Shown: piece after piece, positions 47,840 through 64,000 of the stretch
How the letters are laid out: each line of letters opens with the position of its first letter
Position numbering within the stretch: position 1 is the first letter of the stretch
NCBI RefSeq assembly: GCF_947489715.1
Contig: NZ_CANLER010000003.1
Span: 62,001 to 126,000 of the forward strand
Reading direction: 5' to 3'
Origin: an uncultured Roseovarius sp.
GTDB lineage: Bacteria > Pseudomonadota > Alphaproteobacteria > Rhodobacterales > Rhodobacteraceae
DNA length: 64,000 nucleotides
Notes under the pieces: model-generated
Databases searched by the model: none
Told to the model about the DNA's origin: nothing
The model's input: the letters and a program-made list of their open reading frames with translations, nothing else
Program-made: the position numbers and the translations under genes

Positions 47840-48412
47840 ATGTTTTACAAGGACGAACGGCTGGCGCTGTTCATCGATGGCTCGAATTTATACGCCGCTG
47901 CAAAATCGCTGGGCTTCGACATCGACTACAAACTGCTGCGGGCAGAATTTATGCGCCGCGGCAAGTTGCTGCGCGCATTTTATTATACCGCGCTTCTGGA
48001 GAATGACGAGTATTCACCGATCCGCCCGCTGGTGGACTGGTTGAATTATAACGGCTTCTCGATGGTCACCAAGCCAGCCAAGGAATATACCGACAGCCAG
48101 GGCCGCCGTAAGGTCAAGGGCAACATGGATATCGAACTCGCCGTGGACGCGATGGAACTCGCCCCGCGGGTCGATCATATCGTGCTCTTTTCCGGCGATG
48201 GCGACTTCCGGCCGCTGGTGGAAAGTCTGCAACGCCAAGGTGTGCGTGTCTCGGTGGTGTCGACCATCCGCAGCCAGCCGCCGATGATCTCGGACGACCT
48301 GCGCAGGCAGGCCGATAACTTCATCGAACTTGAAGATCTCCGCGACGTCATCGGACGCCCGCCGCGCGAACCGTCCCCCGACCGGGAAGAGGCCTTCGCC
48401 GCCAGCAAGTAA
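47840..48412 (+). CDS. NYN-domain (LabA/DUF88-like) protein
   Basis: LALFIDGSNLYAAAKSLGFDIDY; KGNMDIELAVDAMELA; VLFSGDGDFRPLVESLQRQGVRV. Confidence 0.9.
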   Translation: MFYKDERLALFIDGSNLYAAAKSLGFDIDYKLLRAEFMRRGKLLRAFYYTALLENDEYSPIRPLVDWLNYNGFSMVTKPAKEYTDSQGRRKVKGNMDIELAVDAMELAPRVDHIVLFSGDGDFRPLVESLQRQGVRVSVVSTIRSQPPMISDDLRRQADNFIELEDLRDVIGRPPREPSPDREEAFAASK

Positions 48413-48420
48413 CACCACAG

Positions 48421-48448
48421 AAACCGGGGCCAAGCGTCTCGGTTTTTT
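48421..48448 (+). terminator. Probable Rho-independent terminator after NYN gene
   Basis: AAACCG...CGGTTTTTT with imperfect inner stem and T-run. Confidence 0.5.
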
Positions 48449-48667
48449 GTTGATCCGCACCCGGTCGGCCCTGAACCTTCGGCCTGAGTTTGAGCGGGGC
48501 CTCCTTGTCGGCCCGTTCGGCAAGACCGCGGATCGGAAGTTTGAAATGGCAGGTCGGCTATTTTATCCTCTCTGACGCAGGCATTTTTCAGCGCCCGCCA
48601 ACCAGATCATCCGAAAATCTCGACGCCGTGCGCTGCAAGGTCCGTCCGTTCTGTTATTCCCTCGCTT

Positions 48668-48722
48668 TGCCGACCTGATTACCGACGCAATACCGACGTT
48701 ATACCGACGTGATACAGATCGC
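48668..48722. repeat. Tandem 11-bp repeat array (consensus ATACCGACNNN)
   Basis: TGCCGACCTGA/TTACCGACGCA/ATACCGACGTT/ATACCGACGTG/ATACAGATCGC. Confidence 0.75.
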
Positions 48723-48844
48723 GGTTTTGCCTGTTAACGCTGGCTCTATCAGCTGATTCGCCCATGCCCGGCGGTTGCGGCGTTAACTTGCCATACATTT
48801 TCAGGATTTCAGACAAGGGCTGGAACGGCTAGTTCGGAACCATT

Positions 48845-49360
48845 ATGTCGACTATCAGACACCGACAGGAGCGCCGGATGACGCCGGATCAGATCGCCCA
48901 ACTACCCTACCGGCCCTGTGTGGGCGTGATGCTCGTCAACAACGACGGACATGTCTTTGTTGGCCAGCGGATCGACAATGACGCCGCTGCCTGGCAAATG
49001 CCCCAGGGCGGTATAGACCCCGGTGAGGCACCGCGTGACGCTGCACTACGTGAGCTTTGGGAAGAAACCGGCGTGCCCGCCGACCTTGTCACCATTGAGG
49101 CCGAAACCGATGGCTGGGTCCCCTACGATCTGCCACTTGAACTGGTGCCGCGCATATGGAAAGGGCGTTTTCGCGGGCAGGAGCAGAAATGGTTTCTACT
49201 GCGTTTTCAGGGGCTTGACGCGGATGTGAATATCTCCACCGATCACCCCGAATTTTCCGAATGGCGCTGGCTGCCGCCCGAAGACCTGGTCGACAATATC
49301 GTACCGTTCAAACGGGACGTCTACATCAGCGTTCTGAAACAGTTTGGAGAGTTGCTATGA
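48845..49360 (+). CDS. rppH: RNA pyrophosphohydrolase (Nudix)
   Basis: [23 protein letters not shown]; Nudix box [23 protein letters not shown]; start may be 48878. Confidence 0.9.
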
Positions 49361-61977: not shown

Positions 61978-62910
61978 CTATTTCCGTGAAACGCCGCGCC
62001 GCCCCAGCACGCGGTTCAGCAACCGCCCGTCGGTGATCATCAAGCCCAGGGCGATCAACCCAAATCCATATACCGCCTCACTGCCCAGCCGCTCGTCAAG
62101 AAACGCATAGCCCAGGCCAACCGCAATCGGTGGGATCAACAGGGTCACCAGCATCAGGTTGGCCGATCCCGCCCGGACAAGAATTTCAAAATAAAGCAGA
62201 TAGGCCACGGCGGTCGATAGAATGGCCACGGCAAACAGGCTGGCCCAGATCTCCGGCGACAAGTTGAAAGATGGCGCGCCGTCCACAACAAAGGCCACCG
62301 GCAACATCAGGATGGTGCTGCCGATCAACATCCCGCAGGCATTCATGATCGGCGGATATCCCGACAGGAAACGTTTCCCCCAGACACCTGCGAATGAATA
62401 GGACAGCGCCGCCCCCAATATAGCGAGCTGACCAAGATTTCTGGGGTCGAAATTTGTAAGCGCCTCAAGCCCCATGATGACAGCGACGCCCAGCACACCG
62501 AACAAGGCCCCGATGATCTTGCGCGCCGTCAGCGGTTCATCGACCAGCAGAATGCCCGCAACAACCGCCCCAAAGACCGCGGTGGTACCATTCAGGATGG
62601 ATGCCAGACCGCTCCCGATCGTCGTTTGACCCCAAAAGATCAACGAGAACGGGATCGCATTGTTCAGCGCACCCATGACCAGATAGCAGGCCCAGGCGCT
62701 GGCAGAGGTCGGGATCTTGATGCCTTTCCACCAGACGACCAGCAAAAGTGCCGGAACCGCCCAGAATACGCGGTGCAGCGTAATCGTAAGCGGCGGCACC
62801 TCGCGCAACGCGATCTCTGCAAAAAAGAAGGACCCGCCCCACACCGTTGCCAATCCAAGCAAAAGCGCGCCAGAGGTCAGATCAATCGATGGGGTTTCAA
62901 CCTGTTTCAT
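61978..62910 (-). CDS. DMT-superfamily (EamA) transporter
   Basis: two EamA-like repeats; TTVWGGSFFFAEIALREVPPL-like N-terminus, LLIPPIAVGLGYAFLDERL. Confidence 0.9.
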   Translation of the reverse strand: MKQVETPSIDLTSGALLLGLATVWGGSFFFAEIALREVPPLTITLHRVFWAVPALLLVVWWKGIKIPTSASAWACYLVMGALNNAIPFSLIFWGQTTIGSGLASILNGTTAVFGAVVAGILLVDEPLTARKIIGALFGVLGVAVIMGLEALTNFDPRNLGQLAILGAALSYSFAGVWGKRFLSGYPPIMNACGMLIGSTILMLPVAFVVDGAPSFNLSPEIWASLFAVAILSTAVAYLLYFEILVRAGSANLMLVTLLIPPIAVGLGYAFLDERLGSEAVYGFGLIALGLMITDGRLLNRVLGRRGVSRK

Positions 62911-63066
62911 TCAGGCGTCGTCGCACAGTCGGCTCAACATCGCGACCCGTTTCTTGCGCAAGATGAGCATCCCTGGACATTTTCGAAGCGATCCTCTCCC
63001 ACCCGTCACAGGCCAGAAGCGGCGTTCCGGCGCGCGGTCTGTTAATCCGGCAAAACACCGATTTTC

Positions 63067-63110
63067 ATACCGACGTAATACCGACAAAATACCGACGTTA
63101 TACCGACAAG
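63067..63110. repeat. Tandem 11-bp repeat array, four exact-period units ATACCGACNNN
   Basis: ATACCGACGTA/ATACCGACAAA/ATACCGACGTT/ATACCGACAAG. Confidence 0.85.
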
Positions 63111-63235
63111 GGTTTTTGAGGAATTTCAGCGCGTTAACCTGATTCTCCGCACGATTGAAATACGGCCGCGCCGTGGCGGTTAAAACCCCGCCGGTTCTTG
63201 CGTCGATTTTCGATCTGGAGGACACCCTTCCGGGG

Positions 63236-64000
63236 TCACTCCGATCGGTTTACGAACCCCGCCCGCCCGATGCTCTCATAGGCCTCGAAACCTGCCCGTT
63301 TGGCATCCTTGGGTGAATAGATATTGCGCAGATCGGCCAGCCGCGGCGCGTTCATCTTTTTCGCGATCCGCTTCAGATCAAGCGCCCGGAACTCGTTCCA
63401 TTCGGTCAAAATCACCAATAAATCTGCATTATTAGCGCATTTATACGGGTCTTCCTGCCAACTGACACCGGGCAGCAGCGCCTCACCTTCGTGCTTGCCC
63501 TGCGGGTCGGTCACCCGCACCCGGGCACCGCCCCCCACAAGCGCCGGAATGATCGTCAGGCTGGGGGCATCGCGCATGTCGTCGGTGTTGGGCTTGAACG
63601 TCACGCCCAGCACCCCGATCAGCTTGCCATTGAAGGATCCGTCGCAGAGATCCAGCAACTTGTCGATCATTCGACGCTTGATCTCTTCATTGACGCCGAT
63701 CACCGTTTCAGTGATCTGCATCGGCAGGCCATGCTCTTGCCCGATCCGGGCCAAAGCCTTGGTATCCTTGGGAAAACAGCTCCCGCCATATCCCGGCCCG
63801 GCATGCAGGAATTTGTTGCCGATGCGTCCATCCAACCCCATGCCATGGCTCACCTGCTTCACATCCGCGCCGGTGCGCTCGCACAAAGCGGCGATCTCAT
63901 TGATGAACGTAATCTTGGTCGCCAGATAGGCATTGGCCGCATATTTGATCATCTCGGCACTTTCCAGACCCGTGGTGATGATCGGAAAATCCCGCAGGTA
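63236..64000 (-). CDS. ugd: UDP-glucose 6-dehydrogenase, 5' end beyond the window
   Basis: ITTGLESAEMIKYAANAYLATKITFINEIAALCE; GPGYGGSCFPKDTKAL; GVTFKPNTDDMRDAPSL; frame stays open to window edge. Confidence 0.9.
   Translation of the reverse strand, partial: YLRDFPIITTGLESAEMIKYAANAYLATKITFINEIAALCERTGADVKQVSHGMGLDGRIGNKFLHAGPGYGGSCFPKDTKALARIGQEHGLPMQITETVIGVNEEIKRRMIDKLLDLCDGSFNGKLIGVLGVTFKPNTDDMRDAPSLTIIPALVGGGARVRVTDPQGKHEGEALLPGVSWQEDPYKCANNADLLVILTEWNEFRALDLKRIAKKMNAPRLADLRNIYSPKDAKRAGFEAYESIGRAGFVNRSE

What the first reader, a model, noticed from the sequence alone, without database searches (positions are those of the whole stretch)
63038..63140. Second 11-bp repeat array with matching flanks, 14 kb away
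Four perfect-period units (ATACCGACGTA/AAA/GTT/AAG). The flanks also resemble the 48.7-kb copy: TCTGTTAATCC upstream (TCTGTTATTCC in the other copy), a T-rich stretch and GTTAAC downstream. The shared layout over ~100 bp suggests a dispersed non-coding element. It is 160 bp upstream of the DMT transporter start but in opposite orientation relative to the neighbouring gene, compared with the first copy.
Basis: partly seen in the sequence, partly recalled or inferred. Interest (0 to 1): 0.68.

Follow-up and report, generated by a model that had tools for sequence, protein, structure and literature searches.

The report
Dispersed intergenic heptamer-array repeat of roseobacters
The short repeat is one of about 75 copies of a non-coding DNA element scattered between genes of this marine bacterium; each carries a row of identical 7-letter sites exactly one helix turn apart that are kept almost unchanged by evolution, so they are probably docking sites for an unidentified DNA-binding protein.

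Summary
TACCGAC-N4-TACCGAC occurs 148 times in this genome and never in the reversed control, which is about 75 arrays. Around half belong to a ~118-bp element at window 63031-63150: left CGCACGCCCTGTTAA box, 3-4 heptamers, right GTTAACC-GATTC box. It has no RNA structure and no inverted terminal repeats.

The element is patchy across Rhodobacteraceae: 42 of 80 congeners match a relaxed pattern, about 26 of them with 25 or more matches, against 28 of 397 genomes across the family. Arrays are nearly always intergenic and favour gene 3' sides (62 convergent, 13 divergent), with no preference for the transcribed strand. One array is a derived insertion (~250 bp, in two sister species only). After insertion, heptamers differ at 1% of positions between sisters, linkers at 16% and left flanks at 29%. 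Spacing is strictly 4 bp (15 of 15 pairs in sequence not chosen for arrays).

That geometry is the one OmpR/PhoB-family response regulators bind, but the protein is unidentified. Best reading: a mobile intergenic repeat carrying selected binding platforms for a lineage-specific, tandem-binding protein. The second window copy sits at a synteny breakpoint (NYN|ispH). I found no published description in the held papers.

The parts
63031..63150 (+). Full-length class A dispersed element containing the array
   Evidence: BLAST of window 62950-63240 against the own genome gives 40 hits, about 25 spanning ~118 bp at 74-90% identity with common ends at query 81-92 and 196-203; column information falls to zero outside these ends in 35 copies
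63032..63048 (+). Left conserved box, consensus CGCACGCCCTGTTAACC
   Evidence: alignments; recurs in other genera
63056..63062 (+). Degenerate heptamer CACCGAT, 12 bp before the first perfect unit
   Evidence: sequence; conserved as ACCGAT in class A copies
63067..63110 (+). Array of four 11-bp units, A-TACCGAC-N4 frame
63133..63145 (+). Right conserved box GTTAACC..GATTC
   Evidence: within the window GTTAAC-N(1-25)-GATTC occurs only beside the two arrays
48679..48718 (+). Second array: three perfect units plus one decayed (ATACAGAT); class B copy
48733..48759 (+). Class B right box GTTAAC-N16-GATTC of the second copy
61978..62910 (-). EamA/DMT transporter gene, start 156 bp from the array (neighbour, not part of the element)
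   Evidence: family named from the sequence, no domain search run
63236..64000 (-). UDP-glucose/GDP-mannose dehydrogenase-type gene, 3' end 125 bp from the array (neighbour; runs off the window)
   Evidence: homologues in most congeners; family named from the sequence
47840..48412 (+). NYN-domain gene left of the second array (neighbour); next to ispH in relatives, split here
48845..49360 (+). RppH-like Nudix gene right of the second array (neighbour)

Best explanation
A non-coding, mobile (copy-spreading) intergenic repeat whose core is a row of 2-5 TACCGAC heptamers held exactly 11 bp apart. Shown: dispersal, intergenic 3'-side location, derived insertion at one site, strict spacing, and conservation of heptamers but not linkers after insertion. 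Inferred: the row is a one-faced landing platform on which a head-to-tail DNA-binding protein with OmpR/PhoB-like geometry assembles cooperatively. That protein is lineage-specific, which would explain why close relatives carry either tens of arrays or none. The element spreads by an unknown route and survives where it does not cut promoters. Heptamers stay perfect because they are bound (host-level selection on sites, or only intact arrays taking part in copy exchange). Recombination between copies can rearrange the chromosome, as suggested by the array at 48.7 kb lying at a synteny breakpoint.
For: 148 pattern matches against 0 reversed. ~118-bp family with sharp ends. Many-or-few distribution in the genus and family. 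Sister species G015 and G463, with regions fetched by flanking genes and not by array: arrays present at 7 of 7 sites, heptamers 2/189 changed, linkers 13/80, left flank 240/821 (Fisher 4e-6 heptamer against linker). At site 306, 12 other species have a 17-121 bp gap and no array, while only G015 and G463 carry a ~250-bp insertion. Adjacent-heptamer spacing is 4 bp in 15 of 15 pairs in unselected DNA, with no inverted pairs. Context 62 convergent/80 tandem/13 divergent against background 30/102/44, P=4e-7. Orthologous array positions between G000 and G007 and across genera. 7-bp motifs with a strict 4-bp spacer, bound more tightly as 3-4 tandem repeats, are described for PhoP of the OmpR/PhoB family (PMC4832192).
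Against: No binding protein was identified and no binding was measured. No gene was shown to co-occur with the arrays. No target-site duplication or transposase was found. Bare arrays without the flanking boxes also occur, so element and array may have separate histories. Orthologous positions between distant species fit vertical descent better than recent mobility. Sequence exchange between copies could keep heptamers uniform without selection at each site.
Confidence: 0.55

Rival explanations
1. Purely selfish non-autonomous mobile element: the heptamer row is the recognition (arm-type) site of the transposase or integrase that copies it, with no host role.
For: Copies within a genome share their own dialect of linkers and flanks (G000 AAAA/GTTA/GTAA, G007 GCGA/GTCA), the sign of recent within-genome spread; patchy distribution; derived insertion; avoidance of divergent promoter regions.
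Against: Heptamers are conserved at fixed orthologous sites long after insertion, also in bare arrays (L304/L362); no transposase or autonomous copy found beside paired arrays; no terminal inverted repeats; not found in phages or plasmids.
Confidence: 0.25
2. Classical regulon: promoter operators of an OmpR/PhoB-family response regulator.
For: Exact 7+4 bp direct-repeat geometry (PMC4832192); some arrays lie ~95-200 bp upstream of conserved genes (yajC, purM, pheT).
Against: Only 13 of 155 arrays lie between divergent genes and 62 between convergent genes; no orientation relative to transcription (43:37); neighbours are unrelated housekeeping genes; the Rhodobacter CenR motif is TGA-N8-TGA, a different sequence and spacing (PMC9275681).
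Confidence: 0.1
3. RNA-level element (terminator, Rho-loading, or translational repeat like TAACTGA).
For: Located at gene 3' ends; heptamer repeats in another lineage were proposed to act after transcription (PMC4679880).
Against: No RNA structure (z -0.23; no covariation); no Rfam match; equal use of sense and antisense orientation.
Confidence: 0.06
4. Replication-polarised or evenly spaced chromosome-organising signal (KOPS-, Chi- or matS-like).
For: Runs of one orientation in parts of G007 and G000 contig 1; spacing slightly more even than random in these two.
Against: No even spacing in G331 or G031 and strand runs near expectation there; absent from close relatives.
Confidence: 0.04

Closest known systems
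OmpR/PhoB-family response-regulator binding sites (pho box CTGTCAT-N4-CTGTCAT; M. tuberculosis PhoP sites)
   Same: 7-bp direct repeats with a strict 4-bp spacer, 11-bp period, sometimes 3-4 in a row (PMC4832192)
   Different: Different heptamer; arrays sit mostly 3' of genes, not at promoters; carried by a dispersed element; no regulator identified
TAACTGA intergenic direct repeats of marine Beggiatoaceae (PMC4679880)
   Same: Dispersed sets of 2-6 copies of one heptamer between genes, patchy across distant taxa, no functional theme
   Different: Most there lie just upstream of start codons; here 3'-biased, a different heptamer, strict 4-bp linkers, inside a larger element with flanking boxes
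REP/ERIC/MITE-type dispersed intergenic repeats (own knowledge)
   Same: ~120-bp, non-coding, tens of copies, intergenic, 3'-side biased, gained by insertion
   Different: No palindrome, hairpin or terminal inverted repeats; core is a direct heptamer array
Plasmid iterons and parC repeats (11-bp direct repeats; own knowledge)
   Same: Head-to-tail repeats of about one helix turn
   Different: Tens of chromosomal loci rather than one origin or centromere; no rep or par genes seen at the arrays

Membership tests
OmpR/PhoB response-regulator operator | Direct 7-bp motifs with strict 4-bp spacer | tested here: met
   15 of 15 adjacent pairs in unselected DNA have 4 bp; no inverted pairs
OmpR/PhoB response-regulator operator | Location in promoters of regulated genes | tested here: not met
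   62 convergent, 13 divergent; significant depletion of divergent gaps
OmpR/PhoB response-regulator operator | Bound by a cognate regulator | not testable with these tools
   needs EMSA, pull-down or ChIP
MITE (non-autonomous DNA transposon) | Terminal inverted repeats | tested here: not met
   ends CCGCACGCCC... and ...GATTCTC are not complementary; GTTAAC boxes are in direct orientation
MITE (non-autonomous DNA transposon) | Target-site duplication | tested here: inconclusive
   intergenic flanks too diverged at the one empty site; no common duplication seen by eye
MITE (non-autonomous DNA transposon) | Presence/absence at orthologous sites | tested here: met
   site 306: filled in G015 and G463, empty in 12 other species
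REP/ERIC palindromic repeats | Hairpin-forming palindrome | tested here: not met
   fold z -0.23, consensus fold -2.4 kcal/mol without covariation
CenR (CenKR) sites of Rhodobacter | TGA-N8-TGA motif | tested here: not met
   motif read in PMC9275681; TACCGAC-N4 differs in sequence and period
KOPS/Chi-like polar chromosome signal | Replichore strand bias | tested here: inconclusive
   weak runs in G007 and G000 contig 1, none in G331 or G031

The most novel reading that the evidence does not exclude
A horizontally acquired, genome-wide array system: a lineage-specific tandem-binding protein with ~20-110 dispersed 3'-side landing platforms that shapes the nucleoid or insulates neighbouring transcription units, spread on a mobile non-coding carrier and kept by selection at each site.
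Probability: 0.15. Interest if true: 0.8.

Novelty: new variant of a known kind. Interest (0 to 1): 0.55.

Why it matters
Roseobacters are heavily studied marine bacteria, yet no description of this abundant element turned up in the literature held here. It pairs mobile-repeat behaviour with binding-site-like conservation, so one pull-down with a 60-bp array could link an unknown protein to dozens of loci at once. It also offers natural contrasts, since close relatives have many arrays or none, and it marks chromosome breakpoints.

Tried and rejected
RNA structure and Rfam: nothing. Replichore polarity and even spacing: not general. CenR sites: wrong motif. Phage or plasmid origin: no element matches; viral-contig pattern hits are nearly all unrelated, often AT-rich repeats, with one Rhodobacterales-like exception, L334. 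Autonomous partner between paired inverted arrays in G000 and G007: only ordinary genes. IS110 next to arrays in G015 lies beside a different repeat and not in the element. Recurrent neighbouring gene family as candidate regulator: none. Pairwise flank similarity of the two window copies as proof: not significant alone. Terminal inverted repeats: absent. The planned 14-site G015 query was pasted short and covered 9 sites.

Full report
WHAT IS THERE. Window 63067-63110 holds four exact 11-bp units, each a TACCGAC heptamer followed by a 4-bp linker. A second array (three perfect units and one decayed) is at 48680-48718. Both lie between genes: NYN-domain gene / RppH-like Nudix gene, and DMT transporter / nucleotide-sugar dehydrogenase. 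Gene names here come from reading the translations; no domain search was run.

GENOME-WIDE FAMILY. In the 5.03-Mb genome, TACCGAC-N4-TACCGAC occurs 148 times and the reversed control 0 times. The first 100 matches form 51 arrays, so about 75 arrays in total (extrapolated). BLAST of the window copy gives 40 hits, about 25 of them spanning ~118 bp at 74-90% identity. Aligning 35 copies in register shows conservation beginning at a CCGCACGCCCTGTTAACC box, running through the array, and ending after GTTAACC-GATTC; information drops to zero outside. A class B right arm has GTTAACCA-N~12-GATTC. The box-array-box layout recurs in other genera. Within the window GTTAAC-N(1-25)-GATTC occurs only beside the two arrays. 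Bare arrays without boxes also exist. The two window copies alone would not have proved shared flanks: shuffles match them often.

DISTRIBUTION. 42 of 80 congeners match the relaxed pattern at least once. About 26 have 25 or more matches; the rest have a few at most. The closest relatives by the genes compared, G026 and G483, have 0 and 2 matches. In the family 28 of 397 genomes match. None of 24 other families in the class sample matched. Named hosts include Roseovarius, Salinihabitans, Sulfitobacter, Shimia and Pseudooceanicola; hits outside Rhodobacterales look unrelated. G463 contig C2 (120,630 bp) equals the length of a Roseovarius sp. record (NZ_JAUCYU010000016.1), so the window genome is most likely Roseovarius in the GTDB sense (inference). 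A crude three-gene tree shows several array-rich clades interleaved with array-free ones.

LOCATION. In G000 46 of 47 scored arrays are intergenic. Over G000, G007, G015 and named genomes the gene context is 62 convergent, 80 tandem, 13 divergent, with 7 scored as inside a predicted gene. Background gaps of 80 bp or more are 30/102/44, P=4e-7. Sense and antisense orientation in tandem gaps are equal (43:37). This argues against promoter operators and against strand-specific RNA signals, and fits an insertion tolerated at 3' sides. Gene calls are from my own codon-usage predictor, so individual assignments are approximate.

EVOLUTION. Arrays occupy orthologous positions in the same orientation between G000 and G007 (about 8-9 sites, including pheT, purM, yajC, livG/livH and ychF; chance expectation about 0.6, my estimate, P about 2e-7) and sometimes across genera. 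In the sister species G015 and G463, where the second genome was sampled through flanking genes, all seven comparable sites carry arrays; heptamers differ at 2 of 189 positions, linkers at 13 of 80, left flanks at 240 of 821. One site differs by exactly one 11-bp unit. At site 306, twelve other species, some rich in arrays elsewhere, have a short gap without an array, so the ~250-bp filled state of G015 and G463 is a gain. Each genome has its own linker and flank dialect, which means copies spread or exchange within genomes. Exchange could keep heptamers uniform, but only if something discards imperfect heptamers, so specific recognition is implied either way.

REARRANGEMENT. The order NYN-ispH is kept in at least 17 congeners, and Salinihabitans has NYN-array-ispH. 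In G000 the two genes are apart and each half carries an array (window 48.7 kb; L045). phoB and ychF flank one array in G007 but are apart in G000, each with its own array (gene names read from the sequence). The simplest reading is recombination between copies. This is two cases without a control for how often array-free gene pairs are split.

MECHANISM. Adjacent heptamers are 4 bp apart in 15 of 15 cases in sequence not selected for arrays, with no inverted pairs. Direct 7-bp motifs with a strict 4-bp spacer, bound more tightly as three or four in a row, are the known mode of M. tuberculosis PhoP and resemble PhoB sites (PMC4832192). I therefore propose a tandem-binding protein. The protein is not identified, and the CenR motif of Rhodobacter does not fit (PMC9275681). 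RNA structure is absent and Rfam has no match. Replication polarity and even spacing are not general. No recombinase, phage or plasmid carrier was found.

NOVELTY. Exact array sequences and relevant term combinations returned no paper describing this element; the library is limited to open-licence PMC papers. The nearest published parallel is the TAACTGA heptamer repeats of Beggiatoaceae (PMC4679880), which differ in position and layout. I call this a new variant of the dispersed intergenic repeat.

Noticed in passing
window 48412-48845; L045; L091; L150-L176: The NYN-ispH gene order, conserved in congeners, is broken in this genome with an array at each broken end.
   Followed up: partly
L050, L059 (G000); L273 (G007): phoB and ychF flank one array in G007 but are at separate loci in G000, each with its own array: a second likely array-associated rearrangement.
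   Followed up: partly
L261-L298 (G007), e.g. L268: In G007 most elements carry an extra upstream module of CGTACGAAAC/GTTTCGTACG units; a separate dispersed family with ATTTTCGTACGAAAAT palindromes also occurs without TACCGAC arrays.
   Followed up: partly
L321:2867-3802, L322:2376-3311 (G015): Identical IS110-type transposase genes sit close to arrays, apparently inserted beside GTAGGGTGGGT...ACCCACCCTAC repeats, another dispersed repeat.
   Followed up: partly
L118, L073, L093 (Sulfitobacter): Bare arrays abut start codons (argC-like; glutamine-synthetase-like), so some may touch translation or promoters.
   Followed up: no
L334: One viral contig (GC 0.62) carries a Rhodobacterales-type array; possibly a prophage of a roseobacter.
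   Followed up: no
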